From IMG/VR virus record IMGVR_UViG_3300046455_000244, positions 1 through 25,928 of that record: DNA of 25,928 nt; one strand, 5' to 3'. Positions 19,215 through 25,927 of the stretch are shown here, one piece after another. The notes under the pieces were generated by a model. The model saw nothing but the letters and a program-made list of their open reading frames with translations. It was not told the origin of the DNA and ran no database searches. Position 1 is the first letter of the stretch. Each line of letters opens with the position of its first letter. The translations under genes were made by a program, and so were the position numbers. The stretch comes from a virus.

Positions 19215-19858
19215 GCCGTGAACACAAGCGCCGCCGGATCCACCTGCCGCGCGCCGAGTGGCTGATCGCCAGCACAGCAGTGTTCCTCCTCGCATTCCTT
19301 GCCTGGCTGGCCGTACAAGTCGTCTCGCTTCACGCAGACCTTCAGACCGCAAACGCGGCCCGCGACCTGCTGGCCCGGCAGGTGCAAGGCCTGGGGGAGA
19401 AGCCCGTCGCAGGTCCGCCCGGATCCCGCGGCGAGTCCGGCCAGACCGTTGTGGGCCCTCGCGGACCCCAGGGCGACCCAGGTCCAATCGGCCCCCTGGG
19501 ACCGGTCGGTCCATCCGGGTCGCCCGGAAAGAACGGCATCAACGGCAGCAACGGCGTCGGCCAGACCGGAGCACCAGGAGCCGCAGGCAGCAACGGCGAT
19601 GCCGGACCGGCTGGGCCGGCCGGACCGCAAGGCGAACAAGGTCCGGCAGGGCCCCCGGGGCCGGCCGGCGCCGACGGCAAGGACGGGACGAACGGAACGA
19701 ACGGCCAGACCTGCCCCGACGGCTACAGCCTGCAGGCCCCGGCTTATGATCCGGACGCCCTCGTCTGCCGCAAGGACGGGGCACCGCAGCCGACGCAGAA
19801 CAAGAGCGGCGGCCTGCTTTCGATGGGCCTCGACCCCAGCCGCCGCCAGTACATATAG
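19211..19858 (+). CDS. Membrane-anchored collagen-like protein
   Basis: This is a 215-residue protein starting at GTG 19211, overlapping the preceding stop by 4 nt. A basic N-terminus (KRRRIHLPR) and one hydrophobic segment (about 17-40) predict a type II membrane anchor with the rest outside. A short coiled coil leads into about 31 Gly-X-Y triplets (about residues 69-165) in three tracts, broken at GQTVV and at GV. A C-terminal part has two cysteines (TCPDGYSL and LVCRKDG). Such repeats form trimeric triple helices. The place in the lysis block and the anchor argue against a normal tail fibre; a trimeric cell-surface or wall-spanning role is possible but unproved. Confidence 0.82.
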
Positions 19859-19866
19859 GAGGCCCC

Positions 19867-20028
19867 GTGCCTGAAGCGATACCCATCCAGCCGCGCCGCG
19901 ACGACAGTGCAGCTGACACGGCAAGCCTGGTCCGGCTGGGCCGCGTCGACGAACAGCCCGTCCCCGTGCCGAGCATCAGCCCGTTCCTCGAACCCGACCT
20001 GCCGCCCCCGCCCGCCGACGGCGAATGA
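19867..20028 (+). CDS. Small hypothetical protein at end of lysis block
   Basis: This is a 53-residue frame from GTG 19867 to TGA 20028, five nt after a strong ATAGGAGG site. It is the last gene before a long terminator. The sequence has SLVRLGRVDEQPVPVPSISP in the middle and a proline-rich acidic end (LEPDLPPPPADGE). No membrane segment or known domain was seen. The strong ribosome site and codon use like its neighbours support a real gene. Confidence 0.65.
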   Translation: MPEAIPIQPRRDDSAADTASLVRLGRVDEQPVPVPSISPFLEPDLPPPPADGE

Positions 20029-20040
20029 CCGCAGCAGAAA

Positions 20041-20079
20041 GCCCCCGCTACTACCCCTTCCCGGGGTGGTGGCGGGGGC
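20041..20079. terminator. Long bidirectional terminator
   Basis: A 17-bp stem (GCCCCCGCTACTACCCC / GGGGTGGTGGCGGGGGC, with two G-T pairs) has a 5-nt loop. On the minus strand it is followed by TTTCT, on the plus strand by CTCTTC. It lies between the last rightward lysis gene and the end of the leftward lipoprotein gene, so it can end both. Confidence 0.85.
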
Positions 20080-20090
20080 CTCTTCGTGTC

Positions 20091-20708
20091 TCAGGACGCC
20101 AGCTGCTGCTTCACCTCGGCGACATGCGGGCCCGAGTCGACGGCCGGCACCTTCCAGCGGAACGCCGTCCCTTCGCCGTCCGTGTACAGGATGGTGCCGC
20201 CCTTCGCCTGCGCGGCCGTCAGATCGAAGACCTTCGCCCGCCACTGATAGGTGCCCGGCTGGACCGGATCGGCGTTGTTGTACTTGTCCATGACGACGTT
20301 CGACGAGTTGCCGCCGTCGAAGCCGATCGACTCCCCGTCCGGGGCGATCCATGTCCAGCCGCCGCCACCGATGGGCGCGGGCTCGTCGGCGGCCACTGCG
20401 GTCATCGCCTTGTCCTTCATCGTGACGACGGCGAAGACGCCGTTCGCCGACGTCTCCCCGCTGGCCTGCTTCACGTACACGACGGTGTCCGGCGTGACCT
20501 CCAGGACGCCCGTACCGCCGTCGCCGGTGGTCTTGGCCGAGTTCCCGAGCGTCAGCGTCTTCCCGGGCGCGGCGCTCTTCTTGCTGCTGTCCGGTGAAGC
20601 GGTCACCGTCGGCTTGTCTGCCGTGTCGGCCTTGTCGCCGCCACCACCGCATGCGGTGAGAGCGGCCAGAAGCAGGGTGGCCGTGGCTGCTGTAGCGCGA
20701 ACGCGCAT
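20091..20708 (-). CDS. Secreted lipoprotein
   Basis: This is a 205-residue lipoprotein on the minus strand. I chose the ATG at 20706-20708; the frame extends further upstream but only this start gives a proper signal peptide. Residues 1-19 have Arg residues and a hydrophobic core (ATAATATLLLAALTA), followed by the lipobox LTAC with lipid-modified Cys20 and a GGGGDK linker. The mature part (about 45-200) is beta-rich, with KTLTLGNSAKTTGDG and VFAVVTMKDKAM strands, resembling Ig-like DUF4352-type lipoprotein domains. Opposite orientation and place after the lysis block suggest expression in the lysogen. Superinfection exclusion is one possible role. Confidence 0.8.
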   Translation of the reverse strand: MRVRATAATATLLLAALTACGGGGDKADTADKPTVTASPDSSKKSAAPGKTLTLGNSAKTTGDGGTGVLEVTPDTVVYVKQASGETSANGVFAVVTMKDKAMTAVAADEPAPIGGGGWTWIAPDGESIGFDGGNSSNVVMDKYNNADPVQPGTYQWRAKVFDLTAAQAKGGTILYTDGEGTAFRWKVPAVDSGPHVAEVKQQLAS

Positions 20709-20941
20709 ATGTCCCCCCAGGGTTGAGCTGATCGGGACACCATAGGGCAGACGGGACGGAAGGGGGAGAGGGGTTGTGGAGCTGTGACATCCGGACACGA
20801 CGACGCCCTCGCTTCTCTGCCAACCGACAGGGGAGCGGGGGCGCTTCGTCATGCCCGGCGCCAGCTCGTCCCCCAACTGGCCACAGCACTAACGCAGTAC
20901 AGCTACGCTTCCGCCACAGATCACGCCCCCGGGGGACCACT
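20709..20941. other. Divergent intergenic region, lipoprotein / Mrr nuclease
   Basis: This 233-nt gap must hold both promoters, but no convincing -35/-10 pair was recognised. It contains an imperfect hairpin of about 13 pairs formed by the stretch near 20803-20815 and GGGAGCGGGGGCG at 20831. The right arm, GGGAGCGGGGGCGCTTCG at 20831-20848, is repeated exactly at 21650-21667 in the terminator after the nuclease gene. No short gene with a good ribosome site was seen. Confidence 0.4.
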
Positions 20942-21613
20942 ATGTCGCCACGCCGCACCCGCGGTTCGTCCTGCCAGTCCGTCGTCATCCGCCTCGTGTG
21001 GGCCGTCGGCGTCCCGCTCGCCGTCCTCCTCCAGCTGGTCAAACACGCTCCGGAAGTCGGCATCCCGCTGCTCCTGGCCGCAGCCGCAGCCGGCGTCCTC
21101 TACTTGGTGCGCCGCGCCCGCAACGCCGAGCGGCAGCGGATCGAGGACGAGCGGCAGCGGATCGAGGACGAACGCTACGCCCAGGTCCTCGAGGTGCAGT
21201 CACGGGAGATCGCCCGCTACCACTCCCTCGGCCCCACCGAGTTCGAGCACGCCATTGCCTACCTGTGCCAGCGGGACGGCTGCACGAACGTCCAGGTGAA
21301 CGGCGGAGCCGGAGACCTCGGGGCCGACGTCACCGCAACCGCCCCAGACGGGCGGCGGATCGTCATCCAGTGCAAGCGGTACGGACCCACCCACAAGGTC
21401 GGATCCCCCGAGATGCAACGGTTCGGCGGCACCTGTTTCACCGTGCACGGCGCCCACGTCGCCGCCCTCGTCACCACCAGCACGTTCACCCGGCAGGCCG
21501 CCAACTACGCCGCCACGCAGGGCATCCGCCTCTACGACGAGCAAACCCTCGCGGGCTGGGCGTCACGGACCGGTCCAGCCCCATGGCACCAGGTCAACCA
21601 GCCGGCTGCATAG
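20942..21613 (+). CDS. Membrane-anchored Mrr-like restriction endonuclease
   Basis: This is a 223-residue protein from ATG 20942, after GGGGGA. Two hydrophobic segments (about 14-33 and 40-56) form a membrane hairpin. A charged helix (60-90) with the repeat ERQRIEDERQRIEDER leads to an Mrr_cat nuclease domain (about 93-210). Nuclease signs are the GPTEFEHAIAYL helix, Asp129 in GDLGADVTA and QxK (Gln143, Lys145) in RRIVIQCKRY, the usual PD-(D/E)xK-type pattern. C-terminal THKVGSPEMQRF and AALVTTSTFTRQA are typical of the family. These enzymes cut modified or foreign DNA. Membrane placement would suit cutting of incoming phage DNA. Target specificity is unknown. Stand-alone gene between terminators. 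Confidence 0.85.
   Translation: MSPRRTRGSSCQSVVIRLVWAVGVPLAVLLQLVKHAPEVGIPLLLAAAAAGVLYLVRRARNAERQRIEDERQRIEDERYAQVLEVQSREIARYHSLGPTEFEHAIAYLCQRDGCTNVQVNGGAGDLGADVTATAPDGRRIVIQCKRYGPTHKVGSPEMQRFGGTCFTVHGAHVAALVTTSTFTRQAANYAATQGIRLYDEQTLAGWASRTGPAPWHQVNQPAA
21128..21169 (+). repeat. Two tandem 21-nt repeats inside the Mrr-like gene
   Basis: GAGCGGCAGCGGATCGAGGAC occurs twice in direct succession, at 21128-21148 and 21149-21169. It encodes a repeated ERQRIED unit of the linker helix between the membrane segments and the nuclease. Unit gain or loss would keep the frame and change helix length by two turns. Confidence 0.9.
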
Positions 21614-21623
21614 TTGCCCGAAG

Positions 21624-21663
21624 GCGCCCCCGCTCGTCGCTGCTGCGATGGGAGCGGGGGCGC
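21624..21663. terminator. Bidirectional terminator between convergent genes
   Basis: A perfect 12-bp stem (GCGCCCCCGCTC / GAGCGGGGGCGC) with a 16-nt loop is followed by TTC. It lies between the nuclease stop at 21613 and the end of the leftward gene at 21673, so it can serve both. Confidence 0.8.
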
Positions 21664-21672
21664 TTCGCTGTG

Positions 21673-21951
21673 TCAGAACGGTGCGTCGCCGTTGCCCTCG
21701 ATGCGCATCCGGAACGGGCCCCTGGGGGAGGCGGCCCAGTCCGACGTGTCCGGGCGGACGAACGCGCCGTCCCGCCCGTCGATGCGTACCCGTCCCTCGG
21801 TGATGTTCAGGAGCACCGGGACGTGTGCCTCGCCGGCGAACGTGAGGATCCCACGCCAGGTGCCGGCCGCGTCCTTGCTGAGATCTGCTTCGCCGGTGAA
21901 CTGGCGGCCGTCGTCGATGAGAAGGAGGGCCGCGCCCTTGTACGTGTTCAT
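21673..21951 (-). CDS. Small hypothetical protein (leftward)
   Basis: This is a 92-residue protein on the minus strand from an ATG at 21949-21951. It has a strand-rich pattern (YKGAALLLIDDGRQFTGEADL, WRGILTFAGEAHVPVLLNI, then RVRIDGRDGAF and PFRMRIEGNG) like a small beta barrel, loosely similar to DUF4873-type Streptomyces proteins. No signal peptide or catalytic motif was seen. No clear ribosome site lies before the ATG, so translation may be leaderless. It converges with the nuclease gene on a shared terminator. Function unknown. Confidence 0.65.
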   Translation of the reverse strand: MNTYKGAALLLIDDGRQFTGEADLSKDAAGTWRGILTFAGEAHVPVLLNITEGRVRIDGRDGAFVRPDTSDWAASPRGPFRMRIEGNGDAPF

Positions 21952-22042
21952 GGTCGGAGGCTAGCCATGGCGTCAAGCGAGGCAGACCTAACGTTCCCTG
22001 GCGTGCGGCCCGTTGGCGCTCTGCGCGGCCGTCGCCATGCGT

Positions 22043-22084
22043 GACTGTCCATCAATCGATCGATTGATAGCTAGTTGGACAGTC
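22043..22084. repeat. Nested palindrome upstream of the serine recombinase
   Basis: Outer arms GACTGTCCA (22043-22051) and TGGACAGTC (22076-22084) form a perfect 9-bp inverted repeat. Inside is a perfect 18-bp palindrome, ATCAATCGATCGATTGAT (22051-22068). Base composition is clearly more AT-rich than the flanking genes. The layout suggests a recombinase binding site, and the inner palindrome may mark a crossover or a regulator site. Confidence 0.8.
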
Positions 22085-22181
22085 GAGGGTCGAAACGGAC
22101 ATATTCGTGCGCCCGGTTGTCCAAAAAGGGTGTACAGAAAGTCTGAATGTCAATTTACTAAGCATGACCCTTTGTTAGACA
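22046..22181. promoter_or_regulatory. Candidate res-like recombination site
   Basis: Six TGTC/GACA half-sites lie in 136 nt before the recombinase start. Forward copies start at 22046, 22118 and 22148; reverse copies end at 22081, 22101 and 22181. Pairs 22046-22081 (36 nt) and 22148-22181 (34 nt) face inward, as do the half-sites of Tn3/gamma-delta res subsites, whose consensus begins TGTC. The half-sites share TGTCCA or TGTC plus A/T-rich bases. The region also must hold the promoter of the recombinase operon, so autoregulation is likely. The function is inferred. Confidence 0.5.
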
Positions 22182-22188
22182 ATGAGGC

Positions 22189-22842
22189 ATGGACCTCGAT
22201 ACCCAAGACCTCCTCGATCCGGTCGGAGGCGGAGGCGCCCTCATCGGCTATGCGCGCGTCAGCACCAAGGGGCAGATCCTCGACCGGCAGATCGCCGCGC
22301 TGGAAGCCGCCGGATGCCAACGGATCTTCTCCGACAAGAAGTCCGGCAAGAACGCCGAACGCGAGGAGCTCCAGAAGGCCCTCGACTACCTGCGCCCCAA
22401 CGACACACTGGTGGTTCCATCCCTCGACCGACTCGGCCGTTCGATCAAGGACCTCATCGGTATCGTCGGCGACCTTCGCGCACAGGGCATCGGCTTCCGA
22501 TCCCTACACGAGTCCCTCGACACGACCACGCCTGGCGGCCGGCTCGTCTTCCATGTCTTCGCAGCCCTCGCGGAGTTCATCCGTGAGCTCATCGTCCAGG
22601 GAACCCATGAAGGTCTCGCCGCAGCGAGGGCTCGCGGCGAGCGTCTCGGCCGGCCGCCAGCCATGACAGAGGAGCAGGTTCGGCATGCTCGCGCCATGCT
22701 CACCGACCCCGACGCGTCCATCAGTTCAATCGCGAAGCTCCTCGGCGTCAGTCGCATGACTATCTACAAGTACGTCCCGGAACTGGCTGCCGGACGTGCG
22801 TCCTTGGTCGCCACTGAAAGCCGCAAGGAGATCACGCCGTGA
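22189..22842 (+). CDS. Serine recombinase, resolvase/invertase family
   Basis: This is a 217-residue small serine recombinase. The catalytic domain begins after a 17-residue extension: LIGYARVSTKGQILDRQ with nucleophile Ser25 and Arg23, then PSLDRLGRSIKDL with Arg81 and Arg84. An oligomerisation helix follows (FAALAEFIRELIVQGTHEGL). The basic link GERLGRPPA leads into a C-terminal helix-turn-helix (about 168-198, ISSIAKLLGVSRMTIYKYVP). All core residues of an active enzyme are present. Size is that of Tn3-type resolvases or Hin/Gin invertases, not of large phage integrases. The ATG has only GAGG one base upstream, a poor site. The stop overlaps the next gene, so both are probably co-translated. 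Confidence 0.93.
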   Translation: MDLDTQDLLDPVGGGGALIGYARVSTKGQILDRQIAALEAAGCQRIFSDKKSGKNAEREELQKALDYLRPNDTLVVPSLDRLGRSIKDLIGIVGDLRAQGIGFRSLHESLDTTTPGGRLVFHVFAALAEFIRELIVQGTHEGLAAARARGERLGRPPAMTEEQVRHARAMLTDPDASISSIAKLLGVSRMTIYKYVPELAAGRASLVATESRKEITP

Positions 22843-24365
22843 CAGACGCCTCCACGGGCACGATCTACGCGCTCATCGACCCGCGTACCGAGGTGGTGCG
22901 TTACGTCGGTCAGACGACCAAGCCGATCGAAGTCAGACTTGCCGGCCACCTCGCTGCCCCCGCTCCGCTAGTCAGGGGGTGGATCGAAGAGCTAGCGGTC
23001 GAAGGTCGACGCCCCGAGATCACACCCATCCGCGAAGACGTCCCCGCCGCCGAACTCGACCTGGCCGAGCGGGAAGAGATCGCGCTGCACGCCACCAGCG
23101 ACGACTTGCTCAACGTGGCAAGCAACGCAGCCGGGAACGCCAAGCGACGCAAAGCCAGCCGCGAAGAGGCGAAGCGCCGGGAAGCCGAAGAGAAGGCCAT
23201 GGATCTGTCATGGCGACAGGCGTCGTGGCGGCTGGTCGCCGACCAAGTCCGGGCGGCGACGGGCGGGCCTATCCCGCCCAGCGACATCCCGGAACGCCGC
23301 ATCCCCGACGCGGTCTGGGAGACCTACCAGTCCTACCGTGAAGCCGAAGACTGGCTGGCACGCCACCCCTCGGGCGGGTACCTCCTGATGCCCGGCGTAG
23401 GGCTGACCGCGGCGGAGGATTCCCCGGAGGCGCGTGAACGCCAGGAGGTCCGGCGGCTCAGGCAGCGCTGCGCAGACGGGCTTGAGGACTTCATGCGGAC
23501 GTTCAGCCGTAGCTTCTCCGCTGTCGACGATGGCGAGCGCTACGGGGACGGGATCTTCGGGCGAGGTGATGACGCCTACAAGGTCGCCTTCACGGATCCA
23601 TCCCAAATGGAGCGCTACCTCAGTCTGATGCCCTGGGCGGCACGAAGTCTCGACCCGTGGGTCGCGCTCGCCGACGCGGCCGGCATCGACAGCCGTGATG
23701 CAGCATTCGCCGATTGGGTGTCGGACGACTCCGACACGCGCGCTGCAGTGAAGCTCTTTCAGGGCGCGGAGACTCCCGGCTACCTGGGGCGCCGGTACGA
23801 CCGGTGGGACACCGACATTGCGTCCTTCACCCTTGCGCTTGGCGCTGCCCACATCCCAGGGTTCGTCGTACCCGAGCTGCTCAGGTCCGACTTGCGCGAA
23901 GGGCTGGTCAAGGTCGCAAAGGACCGTCAAGCCACGGGCGAGATGTGCAAGCTCCTGCAGGAGATCGACCCGAAGGCTCTCGACACCGTCTACGGCAAGG
24001 ATCGCCTGGCCATCGCCGATGCCGAACTCGGGCTGCCCGTGGGGCTTGCAGCCCAGGTCATCGCGAAGGTCTTCGGCACGGACCATCGAGACCCAGACAG
24101 CGAGATCGGCAAGCTCCTTCAGCGGAACGCCGGGTCCTTCCACGCCCCCGCTATACCGGAATACGCGGACTGGTCAGGGATCCATATCCCGGCTATGCGG
24201 TCAGCCACCGCATGCTTCTGCGCGGCCGGCTTGTTCAGCGACGCGGGCGACGATCTGCTCACAGCTGCGATCGAACGATCGAAGCGAACCTGGACGCCTG
24301 GGGGCAGGGGCTTGCAGGTGCTCGAAGAATTGGAGCGAAGCCTGCAGGCAAAGCGAGCAGCTTAG
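22839..24365 (+). CDS. GIY-YIG nuclease-domain protein with long unknown C-terminus
   Basis: This is a 508-residue protein starting at GTG 22839, overlapping the recombinase stop by 4 nt. The N-terminal domain (about 6-95) matches a GIY-YIG endonuclease: GTIYALID (7-14), YVGQT (22-26), Arg33 and His37 in VRLAGHL, Glu77 in LAEREEI, and Asn92 in LLNVASN. A basic, charged helix (about 100-125, KRRKASREEAKRREAEEKA) follows. The remaining about 380 residues are mostly helical and not recognised; they include DWLARHPSGGYLLMPG, WVSDDSDTRAAVKLFQ and a C-terminal helical stretch. Coupling to a recombinase suggests joint action on DNA, but defence or homing roles are possible. Confidence 0.75.
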   Translation: MTDASTGTIYALIDPRTEVVRYVGQTTKPIEVRLAGHLAAPAPLVRGWIEELAVEGRRPEITPIREDVPAAELDLAEREEIALHATSDDLLNVASNAAGNAKRRKASREEAKRREAEEKAMDLSWRQASWRLVADQVRAATGGPIPPSDIPERRIPDAVWETYQSYREAEDWLARHPSGGYLLMPGVGLTAAEDSPEARERQEVRRLRQRCADGLEDFMRTFSRSFSAVDDGERYGDGIFGRGDDAYKVAFTDPSQMERYLSLMPWAARSLDPWVALADAAGIDSRDAAFADWVSDDSDTRAAVKLFQGAETPGYLGRRYDRWDTDIASFTLALGAAHIPGFVVPELLRSDLREGLVKVAKDRQATGEMCKLLQEIDPKALDTVYGKDRLAIADAELGLPVGLAAQVIAKVFGTDHRDPDSEIGKLLQRNAGSFHAPAIPEYADWSGIHIPAMRSATACFCAAGLFSDAGDDLLTAAIERSKRTWTPGGRGLQVLEELERSLQAKRAA

Positions 24366-24547
24366 AACCCTGCCCCGCCTGTCAGCCCCTCGTGCCACAC
24401 TGCCTGTAGGCCACGCTCGTCTGCTCGCGGGAAACCGGGGCACCCGAGATCCTGTCGGTTGATAGCCAGACTGGCTGCGGCAGTGCGGCCTCCTGGGGCC
24501 GTCCGATCGGCTGCCGCTGCTGGCCTCATGAACCAGCGTCCAGCCTT

Positions 24548-24579
24548 GCGCCCGCCCCCGACATTCCCGGGGCGGGCGC
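24548..24579 (+). terminator. Hairpin terminator before the LexA-like gene
   Basis: A perfect 11-bp stem (GCGCCCGCCCC / GGGGCGGGCGC) has a 10-nt loop and is followed by TCGTG, without a clear T-run. It lies between the GIY-YIG gene and the LexA-like gene and probably separates their transcription. Confidence 0.65.
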
Positions 24580-24599
24580 TCGTGCGTGGGCCCACCGAC

Positions 24600-24635
24600 T
24601 TGCCCCAAAATTCGAACACGCGCTCTAATCGATTC
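24600..24635 (+). promoter_or_regulatory. Possible leaderless promoter with partial SOS-box match
   Basis: TTGCCC (24600-24605) and TCTAAT (24624-24629) are 18 nt apart and may be a -35/-10 pair. A start about 7 nt after the -10 element would fall on the ATG at 24636, giving a leaderless message; no ribosome site is present. Between them, CGAACACGCGCTCT (24613-24626) matches the Gram-positive SOS box CGAAC-N4-GTTCG fully in the left half and at three of five bases in the right. Confidence 0.4.
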
Positions 24636-24860
24636 ATGGGCCACTACAAGGTCGAGCACCTCACCGACACCCAGGAGCGCATCCTCCGCTGCATCCGCGA
24701 GGCCATCGCCGACCGGGGTGAGGCGCCGACCGTGCAGGAGATCGGGGAGCAGGTCGGCATGCGCAGCCGCGCCTCCGTCCACTACCAGCTCGGCGAGCTG
24801 GAGGCGAAGCATGCGATCGTGCGCGAGCCGCACCGCCGGCGCGGGATCCGGCTCGCGTGA
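24636..24860 (+). CDS. LexA-like DNA-binding domain protein (no peptidase domain)
   Basis: This is a 74-residue protein made of one winged helix-turn-helix. The order LTDTQERILRCIREAIADRG, then APTVQEIGEQVGMRSRASVH and the wing VREPHRRRGIRLA matches the N-terminal domain of LexA. Full LexA is about 200-260 residues; the Ser-Lys self-cleavage domain is missing and the gene stops right after the wing. Such a protein could bind SOS operators without being cleaved after DNA damage, or control phage genes. ATG 24636 fits the domain start; an in-frame ATG at 24528 would add a proline-rich tail across a hairpin and is unlikely. The stop overlaps the following gene. Confidence 0.85.
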   Translation: MGHYKVEHLTDTQERILRCIREAIADRGEAPTVQEIGEQVGMRSRASVHYQLGELEAKHAIVREPHRRRGIRLA

Positions 24861-25072
24861 TGGACGACGAGCGCTACCACCTCACCCTGACCCTCGACGG
24901 CCGTCCCGCGATGCACGGCTGGTGGGGGAGCGAGGCGACGGCCCGACGCCAGTTCTCCACCTGGATCGGCGAGCGCGGCAGCATGCCCGGCGTGCGCATC
25001 GTTCTCGTCGACGAGTACGAGCAGCGGGTCCTCGCGTCCTGGCCCGATGAGGCGGACGGCCTGCAAGACTGA
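24857..25072 (+). CDS. Small hypothetical protein
   Basis: This is a 71-residue protein starting at GTG 24857 or at the adjacent ATG 24860, both overlapping the stop of the LexA-like gene. The pattern is strand-helix-strand (YHLTLTLDGRPAMHGWW, SEATARRQFSTWIGE, GVRIVLVDEYEQRVLASW), a compact alpha/beta fold. No family was recognised. Coupling to the LexA-like gene implies joint expression, and a terminator follows directly. Confidence 0.7.
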   Translation: MMDDERYHLTLTLDGRPAMHGWWGSEATARRQFSTWIGERGSMPGVRIVLVDEYEQRVLASWPDEADGLQD

Positions 25073-25075
25073 TAC

Positions 25076-25110
25076 TGCCCCTCGGTCGTCATCCCCGTCG
25101 CCGAGGGGCA
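25076..25110 (+). terminator. Terminator after the small hypothetical gene
   Basis: A perfect 10-bp stem (TGCCCCTCGG / CCGAGGGGCA) with a 15-nt loop starts 3 nt after the stop and is followed by CCTCGTTG. It ends the LexA-like operon. Confidence 0.75.
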
Positions 25111-25174
25111 CCTCGTTGTCAGTGGCCGCAGATAGGCTGATCGCACATATCCGCGTTGCATGGCTGCACGCGCT

Positions 25175-25217
25175 CGCCCCGCACTCCCGATGGACAGCGC
25201 CGCCGGGGTGCGGGGCG
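25175..25217. repeat. Hairpin in the leader of the HAD gene
   Basis: A 13-bp inverted repeat (CGCCCCGCACTCC / GGGGTGCGGGGCG, one G-T pair) has a 17-nt loop. It ends just before the ribosome site of the HAD-family gene. With no T-run it may be an RNA stabiliser or attenuator rather than a terminator. Confidence 0.55.
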
Positions 25218-25235
25218 CTCGACTTGGAGGACCCG

Positions 25236-25646
25236 ATGGCGGATCGCGTACAGACGGTGGCCGTCGACTTCGACGGCGTCCTGCACAGCTACGAGCGCGG
25301 CTGGGCCGACGGCACCATCTACGGGGACTGGAAGCCGGGGGCCGTCACCGGGCTGACGCAGCTCATGCAGGAGTACGCCGTATTCATCCACACGACCCGC
25401 AGTGCCAAGCAGGTCGCACGTTGGATTGAGCAGATGTCCGGCTACGGCATCGAGTGCACGACGGCGGTCCCCCGAACGGGTCTGCTGCGGCGGCCGGGCT
25501 TCTGGAACCGGCAGGGCTACCTGCTCGTCACCAACCTCAAACTGCCCGCCATTGCCTACATCGACGACCGGGCGGTGCGGTTCAAAGACTGGCCGCAAGC
25601 CCTGGGCGCACTGGGCATCGAGGCGCTGGAGAAGCGTCCGAGCTAG
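25236..25646 (+). CDS. HAD-family phosphatase
   Basis: This is a 136-residue protein from ATG 25236 behind TTGGAGG. Motif I is VDFDGVL with Asp11 and Asp13 (nucleophile and acid). Motif II is probably the Thr of FIHTTRS. The acidic motif is AYIDDRAVRF with Asp110 and Asp111. The small size, with only a minimal cap, resembles the phosphatase half of polynucleotide kinase and similar proteins often found in actinophages, which act on DNA ends or nucleotides. The substrate cannot be read from the sequence. Its stop overlaps the stop of the converging gene by 4 nt. Confidence 0.8.
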   Translation: MADRVQTVAVDFDGVLHSYERGWADGTIYGDWKPGAVTGLTQLMQEYAVFIHTTRSAKQVARWIEQMSGYGIECTTAVPRTGLLRRPGFWNRQGYLLVTNLKLPAIAYIDDRAVRFKDWPQALGALGIEALEKRPS

Positions 25647-25843
25647 GCCGCTGTCTCGTACCGCACGAGCGTCTTGAGTCCGAGCTCGACGTCCATCCGC
25701 CGCAGCCCGGCCTGCTCGGCGAACGCGGTGACCGCCTCGTGTACGGCGCGCGCCGTCTCCAGGGTCAGCTCGCCGCGCTGAATCTCAGCCCAGGCGGCCG
25801 TCTCCAGCGCGATCAGATCTTCAGGAAATTCGATGGTTGCCAC
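25643..25843 (-). CDS. Small hypothetical protein (leftward)
   Basis: This is a 66-residue, largely helical protein on the minus strand, starting at a GTG (25841-25843) with AGGA seven bases upstream. Helices are FPEDLIALETAAWAEIQRG, LETARAVHEAVTAFAEQAG and MDVELGLKTLVRYE. It follows another leftward gene by 9 nt, suggesting an operon entering from the right. Similar short proteins occur widely in Streptomyces without known function. A DNA-binding or antitoxin-like role is conceivable but unsupported. Confidence 0.65.
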   Translation of the reverse strand: MATIEFPEDLIALETAAWAEIQRGELTLETARAVHEAVTAFAEQAGLRRMDVELGLKTLVRYETAA

Positions 25844-25852
25844 CGCTGGATC

Positions 25853-25927
25853 CTAAGCGGCTTTCACGACGTCCCCGCGCATCCGCTCGGCCGCTGCGGC
25901 GACCGCCCACTCGGCAACGAGCACCTC
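25853..25927 (-). CDS. C-terminal end of a leftward gene (partial)
   Basis: The last 24 residues of a gene that enters from the right edge, ending EWAVAAAAERMRGDVVKAA and TAG at 25853-25855. It is helical and ends 9 nt before the start of the next leftward gene, so the two probably form one operon. Too short to identify. Confidence 0.5.
   Translation of the reverse strand, partial: EVLVAEWAVAAAAERMRGDVVKAA

What the first reader, a model, noticed from the sequence alone, without database searches (positions are those of the whole stretch)
22043..24365. Coupled serine recombinase and GIY-YIG nuclease with a res-like control site
The sequence shows an intact resolvase-type recombinase overlapping by 4 nt a 508-residue protein with a GIY-YIG domain and about 380 unrecognised residues, preceded by nested palindromes and six TGTC/GACA half-sites. 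Resolvases and GIY-YIG enzymes are each well known. I know of no described system that pairs them in one operon behind a res-like site. Inference: a mobile or DNA-rearranging module, or a DNA-cutting defence unit, carried as cargo.
Basis: partly seen in the sequence, partly recalled or inferred. Interest (0 to 1): 0.8.

Follow-up and report, generated by a model that had tools for sequence, protein, structure and literature searches.

The report
Phage recombinase with swappable nuclease partner
A Streptomyces-type phage carries a plasmid-style DNA recombinase and its control site joined to a DNA-cutting enzyme; related phages keep the recombinase and site but swap in other nucleases, which looks like a "selfish" nuclease spreading from phage to phage behind a recombinase gene.

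Summary
Window 22189-22842 encodes an intact small serine recombinase, overlapping by 4 nt a 508-aa protein with a GIY-YIG domain (best solved match I-TevI, Z 10.3). A res-like site lies upstream and is conserved base by base in 17 loci with unrelated flanks. The pairing is real but not exclusive. The same recombinase and site carry, at the same 4-nt junction, GIY-YIG proteins (5 loci), Endonuclease VII nucleases (7), a T5orf172-like protein, a tyrosine-recombinase fragment, an unknown protein, or nothing. In Streptomyces plasmids they mostly stand alone. Conversely, the GIY-YIG family also follows three different tyrosine recombinases. The nuclease moves independently of the recombinase. Between the window and L005 it is nearly identical (dS 0.03) while the recombinase is diverged (dS 0.51), with a breakpoint about 120 bp before the recombinase stop codon. 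GIY-carrying recombinases do not form a clade (p-AU 8e-8). Best reading: a plasmid-type resolvase/res unit at a prophage cargo hotspot, whose 3' end is colonised by exchangeable, probably homing, nucleases. Defence or competition is the main rival. Cleavage and recombination are untested. I found no description of this recombinase-nuclease slot.

The parts
20810..20855 (.). left flank of the prophage cargo hotspot (terminator-like, conserved in L067)
   Evidence: 46 bp at 91% identity to L067 341-386; in L040 the flank homologous to window 19337-20840 runs to within about 10 bp of the cassette
22043..22083 (.). res site I-like palindrome; 28-bp core 22046-22073 (TGTCCATCAATCGATCGATTGATAGCTA) plus an extra half-site ending GGACAGTC
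   Evidence: conserved in 17 phage loci and in plasmids of the same recombinase clade; 23 distinct 28-mers, 81% of dyad positions complementary, 0 of 2000 shuffles reach it
22117..22182 (.). accessory half-site region (sites II/III-like): TTGTCCAAAAAGGGTGTACAGAAAG ... CCCTTTGTTAGACAA
   Evidence: conserved in the same alignments
22189..22842 (+). small serine recombinase of resolvase/invertase type, 217 aa; catalytic motif GYARVSTKGQ (Ser25), SLDRLGRS, HTH_7
   Evidence: PF00239 E 3.5e-43 and PF02796 E 7.6e-11; Gin invertase 4m6f E 8.6e-46, gamma-delta resolvase E 5e-30; dN/dS 0.08-0.16 in window comparisons
22712..22720 (.). upstream breakpoint of a recent nuclease transfer (L005 changes from L040-like to window-like here)
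22839..24365 (+). GIY-YIG protein, 508 aa; nuclease domain about 22854-23129 (residues 6-97), helical linker to about residue 141
   Evidence: AF2 model pLDDT 81.5; VIA-align Z 10.3 to I-TevI 1ln0, 9.4 to PD-T4-3 9u7u; dN/dS 0.12-0.30 within the close group
23262..24362 (+). all-helical C-terminal region (residues 142-508), no assignable fold
   Evidence: full-length model and the region folded alone, pLDDT 76; no PDB match above Z 5.7
24364..24587 (.). conserved 3' segment ending in terminator hairpin 24548-24579; shared by cassettes with different nucleases (L040) and partly by L067 and L069
   Evidence: 92.9% identity to L040 6239-6457 after the exchanged nuclease gene

Best explanation
A plasmid-type resolvase/res unit sits in a cargo hotspot between the lysis genes and a LexA-like gene of an integrative temperate Streptomyces-type phage family. 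The recombinase binds the adjacent half-sites, controls its own operon and can recombine DNA at site I (inferred from family and site anatomy). The gene overlapping its stop codon is an exchangeable nuclease, here GIY-YIG with a helical targeting/scaffold region. Such nucleases spread between phages in the manner of free-standing homing endonucleases: the enzyme breaks the corresponding locus of a co-infecting phage or resident prophage, and repair copies the nuclease with short flanks (the end of the recombinase gene and the 3' segment), replacing whatever partner was there. Shown: pairing, site conservation, partner exchange, one recent short-tract transfer, purifying selection, conserved catalytic residues. 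Inferred: cleavage, target, homing, resolvase activity.
For: (1) Same recombinase and site with at least five kinds of partner at the same 4-nt junction, and one without a partner (L038). (2) Window vs L005: nuclease dS 0.029, recombinase dS 0.506; L005 matches L040 (Endonuclease VII carrier) at up to 99% until about window 22720, then the window at 97-100%. (3) GIY-carrying recombinases are not a clade: L005 groups with L040 (99/99), p-AU 7.5e-8; 8 partner changes on the phage tree. (4) The nuclease families are those of known phage homing enzymes: GIY-YIG (T4 seg genes, PMC2988022), the Endo VII motif (F-CphI, PMC6083498), T5orf172 (PMC10448857). (5) T4-type phages show replacement of one free-standing HEG by another at one place (SegH/Hef paper title in the PMC2988022 reference list). 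(6) Recombinase and res stand alone in most plasmids and in L038, so the nuclease is not an obligate cofactor.
Against: Not all partners are recognisable nucleases (221-aa family in L039/L089/L091; tyrosine-recombinase fragment in L048). The nuclease family also follows tyrosine recombinases with no DNA similarity, so one conserved cleavage site in the recombinase gene cannot explain all cases. A 508-aa GIY-YIG protein with a 367-aa helical region is unusual for a homing enzyme. Ordinary homologous recombination under selection for new nucleases would give the same tracts. No cleavage site is known.
Confidence: 0.45

Rival explanations
1. The nuclease is an anti-phage or inter-phage exclusion effector carried by the prophage; the recombinase and its half-sites act mainly as a regulated expression unit, and partner exchange reflects an arms race.
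For: Cargo position in a prophage hotspot beside an Mrr-type endonuclease gene; the second-best PDB protein for the nuclease domain is the 5hmC-specific defence enzyme PD-T4-3, Z 9.4; strong diversification of partners at one place; HEG-type domains are used in phage-satellite conflict (PMC10448857).
Against: No PADLOC match for the GIY-YIG proteins; no immunity or modification gene beside it; the short transfer tract and co-conversion-like breakpoint fit homing at least as well.
Confidence: 0.25
2. Recombinase and nuclease form a functional mobility pair comparable to TnpA/TnpB of IS607: the recombinase excises or inserts DNA at site I and the nuclease cuts empty sites so that repair restores the element.
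For: One nuclease family pairs with unrelated recombinase classes (serine x5, tyrosine x3), as do Endonuclease VII and the unknown family; the left similarity boundary lies at site I in many contexts.
Against: Only one site I-like copy per record in the exact scan; no second site at the right end and no empty site with a matching junction found; nuclease and recombinase move separately; one recombinase tolerates many partners or none.
Confidence: 0.15
3. Coincidence within a mosaic cargo region: unrelated cargo genes end up behind the recombinase, and the 4-nt overlap is just the usual packing of phage genes.
For: 4-nt overlaps make up 22 of 63 adjacent pairs in phage Kromp; the hotspot holds many kinds of cargo (Ku, TROVE, REase).
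Against: 15 of 16 close phage recombinases have a partner at exactly this offset (P 1.5e-6 under the Kromp rate, assuming independence); most partners are DNA-cutting enzymes; 8 of 8 GIY relatives follow a recombinase.
Confidence: 0.15

Closest known systems
Resolvase/res multimer-resolution systems of actinobacterial plasmids and Tn3-family resolvases
   Same: Recombinase 75-83% identical in circular Streptomyces plasmids, with the same 28-bp site I (e.g. TGTCCAACAACCGATCGGTTGTTGGACG in the phage/plasmid group) and accessory half-sites upstream
   Different: In plasmids it usually stands alone; in the phages a partner gene overlaps it, site I of the window-type group has a displaced right half-site, and the phages have their own tyrosine integrase and no ParA match
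Free-standing phage homing endonucleases (T4 SegA-G, GIY-YIG; SegH/Hef replacing mobC/mobE)
   Same: Optional nuclease gene inserted directly beside a conserved gene, often promoter-less, transferred with flanks, replaceable by another nuclease at the same place (PMC2988022)
   Different: Larger protein with an unassigned helical region; the neighbour is a site-specific recombinase; no cleavage site or preferential inheritance shown
F-CphI, Endo VII-motif homing endonuclease
   Same: The nuclease motif of the commonest alternative partner, CAICG...DHDH...RGWLC..CN (PF02945; PMC6083498)
   Different: F-CphI is encoded beside the intron-containing psbA gene; here the gene follows a recombinase
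IS607-family elements (serine recombinase TnpA with nuclease TnpB)
   Same: Serine recombinase gene followed by a nuclease gene; a nuclease family that pairs with unrelated recombinases
   Different: TnpB is an RNA-guided RuvC-type nuclease; the IS607 TnpA model reaches only 25 bits against a cut-off of 110; no element ends found
PD-T4-3 (GIY-YIG defence endonuclease)
   Same: GIY-YIG fold, Z 9.4
   Different: Fold similarity in the nuclease domain only; no similarity in the rest

Membership tests
Small serine recombinases (resolvase/invertase) | Resolvase catalytic domain with nucleophile Ser and Arg residues, plus C-terminal HTH | tested here: met
   PF00239 and PF02796 over cut-off; GYARVST (Ser25) and SLDRLGRS conserved
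Resolvase/res systems | Upstream res with a 28-bp site I dyad and accessory half-sites | tested here: met
   in the window group the right half of site I is degenerate, with an extra half-site 8 bp further on
Resolvase/res systems | Recombination between two res sites in direct repeat | not testable with these tools
   Needs an in vivo or in vitro recombination assay
GIY-YIG superfamily nucleases | GIY-YIG fold with catalytic Tyr, Arg, Glu (and Asn) residues | tested here: met
   I-TevI Z 10.3 over 85 residues; conserved Y10, Y22, R33, H37, E77/E80, N92
Free-standing homing endonucleases | Optional gene beside a conserved gene, present/absent or replaced among relatives | tested here: met
   L038 without partner; window, L005 and L040 carry different partners behind related recombinases
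Free-standing homing endonucleases | Transfer with co-converted flanks, independent of surrounding genes | tested here: met
   dS contrast and breakpoint; ordinary recombination gives the same pattern
Free-standing homing endonucleases | Site-specific cleavage of the allele lacking the gene | not testable with these tools
   Biochemistry needed
IS607-type recombinase-nuclease elements | TnpB-like RuvC nuclease | tested here: not met
   Second gene is GIY-YIG
IS607-type recombinase-nuclease elements | Defined element ends with empty sites | tested here: inconclusive
   Left boundary at site I in many contexts, but no right-end site or empty site found
Known anti-phage defence systems (PADLOC) | Match to a catalogued defence gene | tested here: not met
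   No PADLOC match for the GIY-YIG proteins
Plasmid-prophage maintenance | Partition genes and lack of an integrase | tested here: not met
   No ParA-type match in 18 records; tyrosine recombinases elsewhere in most records; records may be incomplete

The most novel reading that the evidence does not exclude
Site-specific recombinases of either chemistry (serine or tyrosine) and interchangeable DNA-cutting proteins form a general two-gene modular system in actinobacterial phages, a functional analogue of TnpA/TnpB in which the nuclease secures spread or retention of the recombinase locus.
Probability: 0.2. Interest if true: 0.85.

Novelty: new variant of a known kind. Interest (0 to 1): 0.6.

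Why it matters
It shows a defined slot in a large actinobacterial phage family where nucleases of several unrelated families take turns behind the same recombinase and control site. That gives a natural experiment on whether phage nuclease genes spread as selfish homing elements or are exchanged as weapons, and natural variants (with GIY-YIG, with Endonuclease VII, with none) make it directly testable. It also warns that 'recombinase family protein' and 'Endonuclease VII' genes in prophages may be parts of one operon rather than separate debris.

Tried and rejected
Dedicated fixed two-gene system: rejected because one recombinase subclade carries many partners or none. DNA invertase switching tail genes: the recombinase is closest in sequence to Gin, but the adjacent site has TGTC half-sites like res, no second copy was found, and the tail genes lie several kb away with other genes between. 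Plasmid-prophage multimer resolution as the main role: no ParA match and integrases present, although the plasmid relatives probably do this. Pfam, PHROGs, NCBIfam, PADLOC and PDB sequence searches with the 508-aa protein gave nothing. C-terminal fold: no convincing match; the top rows for residues 142-508 are sigma-factor chains at Z 4.5-5.7, barely above unrelated rows, so treated as chance. Genome collection: both scans of genome contigs found no confirmed relatives and no genome handle could be obtained for a Streptomyces-wide census. Phage collection: no relative of P0002 in GenBank phages at 1e-5 and almost no DNA similarity for 19900-25900.

Full report
Setting. The window is a 25.9-kb IMG/VR virus record with portal, capsid, tape-measure, tail and endolysin genes, GC-rich and Streptomyces-like. 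The finding lies after the lysis genes, in a cargo stretch followed by a stand-alone LexA DNA-binding domain (24636-24857, PF01726 E 2.6e-16).

The observation. The recombinase (22189-22842, 217 aa) is an intact small serine recombinase: PF00239 E 3.5e-43 and an HTH_7 domain, with the closest solved relative the Gin invertase (E 8.6e-46), then gamma-delta resolvase (E 5e-30). It overlaps by GTGA the 508-aa gene 22839-24365. No sequence library recognises the latter. An AlphaFold2 model from its own relatives (mean pLDDT 81.5) has a GIY-YIG fold at residues 6-97 (I-TevI catalytic domain Z 10.3, PD-T4-3 Z 9.4, UvrC Z 7.3) with the catalytic residues conserved. The rest is helical; folded alone (pLDDT 76) it has no assignable relative (best Z 5.7). 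Both genes are under purifying selection.

The site. Six TGTC/GACA half-sites lie in 22043-22188 (1.7 expected, 3 of 1000 shuffles reach six). In 17 loci with the same recombinase the block from the palindrome to the start codon aligns almost without gaps, while the DNA further upstream is unrelated. In one group (L045-L049) site I is a resolvase-type 28-bp dyad, cleanest as TGTCCAACAATCGATCGGTTGTTGGACG (L047). In the window group the dyad centre is the same, but its right outer part is displaced by 8 bp and an extra half-site follows. Among 23 distinct 28-mers 81% of dyad positions are complementary, and no shuffle of 2000 reaches this. Circular Streptomyces plasmids carry the same kind of site upstream of the same recombinase clade. 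In 9 of 12 inspected plasmids nothing follows it closely on the same strand; the others have a Tn3 transposase gene (L060), a 76-aa ORF (L064) and an overlapping resolvase-domain gene (L059). So recombinase plus site is a plasmid-type resolvase/res unit.

Partner exchange. In the viral collection the second gene changes while the recombinase stays. It is a long GIY-YIG protein in the window, L005, L006, L007 and L008; an Endonuclease VII nuclease in L036, L040, L041, L042, L043, L044 and L049 (PF02945 E 4.5e-17 to 2.4e-13 in the five tested; the other two align with them); a cysteine-rich protein with a T5orf172/GIY-like end in L045 (my reading of the sequence; no Pfam match); a tyrosine-recombinase-like fragment in L048 (weak PF00589, E 0.014); and an unknown 221-aa protein in L039. 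L038 has no partner: a terminator follows the recombinase stop. In 15 of 16 close phage relatives the partner starts with exactly a 4-nt overlap. That offset is common in Streptomyces phages (22 of 63 pairs), so consistency rather than overlap is the point (P 1.5e-6 if independent, which related loci are not). Conversely the GIY-YIG family follows three different tyrosine recombinases: L009 (-4 nt), L030 (+4 nt) and Streptomyces plasmid NZ_CP109578 (L004, -14 nt). Endonuclease VII follows a tyrosine recombinase in L082, and the unknown family does so in L089 and L091.

The nuclease moves on its own. Window and L005 share a nearly identical GIY-YIG gene (dS 0.029) but diverged recombinases (dS 0.506). 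L005's recombinase is 90-99% identical to that of L040, an Endonuclease VII carrier, over most of its length; at about window 22720, some 120 bp before the stop codon, L005 becomes 97-100% identical to the window, and stays so through the nuclease. Downstream all cassettes of this group share the segment 24364-24587, so the right breakpoint cannot be placed exactly. On the recombinase tree L005 groups with L040 (99/99), the window and L006 with L036 (99/97), and L039 with L042 (100/99). A single clade of GIY carriers is rejected (p-AU 7.5e-8), and eight partner changes are needed.

Hotspot. A scan with the small protein after the LexA-like gene gave 80 related loci. The stretch before it holds a variable mix: serine recombinases of this clade or another, tyrosine recombinases, Ku, TROVE, REase and nucleases. 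Several of these phages have two tyrosine recombinases, one in this slot and one on the other strand several kb away that is probably the integrase. In L040 the flanks are those of the window on both sides (19337-20840 and 24861-25903).

Mechanism. I favour a resolvase/res unit whose 3' end is a landing place for homing-like nucleases (confidence 0.45). The nuclease families match those of known phage homing enzymes: GIY-YIG (PMC2988022), the Endo VII motif (PMC6083498) and T5orf172 (PMC10448857). Replacement of one such gene by another at one place is known in T4-like phages. The same tracts could arise by ordinary recombination if the nucleases are weapons against other phages, which is the main rival. 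A TnpA/TnpB-like partnership is the boldest reading: attractive because nucleases pair with both recombinase chemistries, but unsupported by element ends. Cleavage, target and recombination were not tested.

Limits. The relatives come from pattern-based scans of viral contigs and are not a census; many records are fragments. Whole bacterial genomes could not be surveyed. The paper library holds open-licence papers only; searches for recombinase-nuclease pairs of this kind found none, which is weak evidence of novelty.

Noticed in passing
window 20942-21613: Mrr-type restriction endonuclease gene (PF04471, E 7.5e-26) with an N-terminal membrane-like stretch, cargo next to the cassette; absent from the otherwise similar L040.
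   Followed up: partly
L035 8491-9414, L040 6921-7784 and about 20 further hotspot loci: Phage-encoded Ku-like gene in the same cargo region, between the cassette and the LexA-like gene.
   Followed up: no
L007 9822-11501, L030 10429-12033, L082 2485-4128: TROVE/Ro60-like gene in the same hotspot, twice close downstream of the GIY-YIG gene.
   Followed up: no
L040 5648-6127, L043 5654-6295, L049 5648-6223; L082 6053-7126: Several Endonuclease VII partners end in ...ADKWTDAxSxDI(G)L, the same tail as the C-terminus of the tyrosine recombinase in L082; possibly captured recombinase 3' coding sequence or a docking tail.
   Followed up: partly
L004 9427-10503 and L009 9436-10416: A further tyrosine-recombinase-like gene overlaps or converges with the GIY-YIG gene, giving recombinase-nuclease-recombinase order.
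   Followed up: no
L059 4160-4615: A plasmid resolvase followed with a 4-nt overlap by a 151-aa protein with a resolvase catalytic domain only (PF00239 E 5e-8).
   Followed up: no
window 24636-24857: Stand-alone LexA DNA-binding domain without the peptidase part, followed by a small HGWW protein; conserved as a pair in many of these phages.
   Followed up: partly
window 21673-21951 (minus strand): Small conserved protein of unknown function (92 codons) often found just before the recombinase slot.
   Followed up: no
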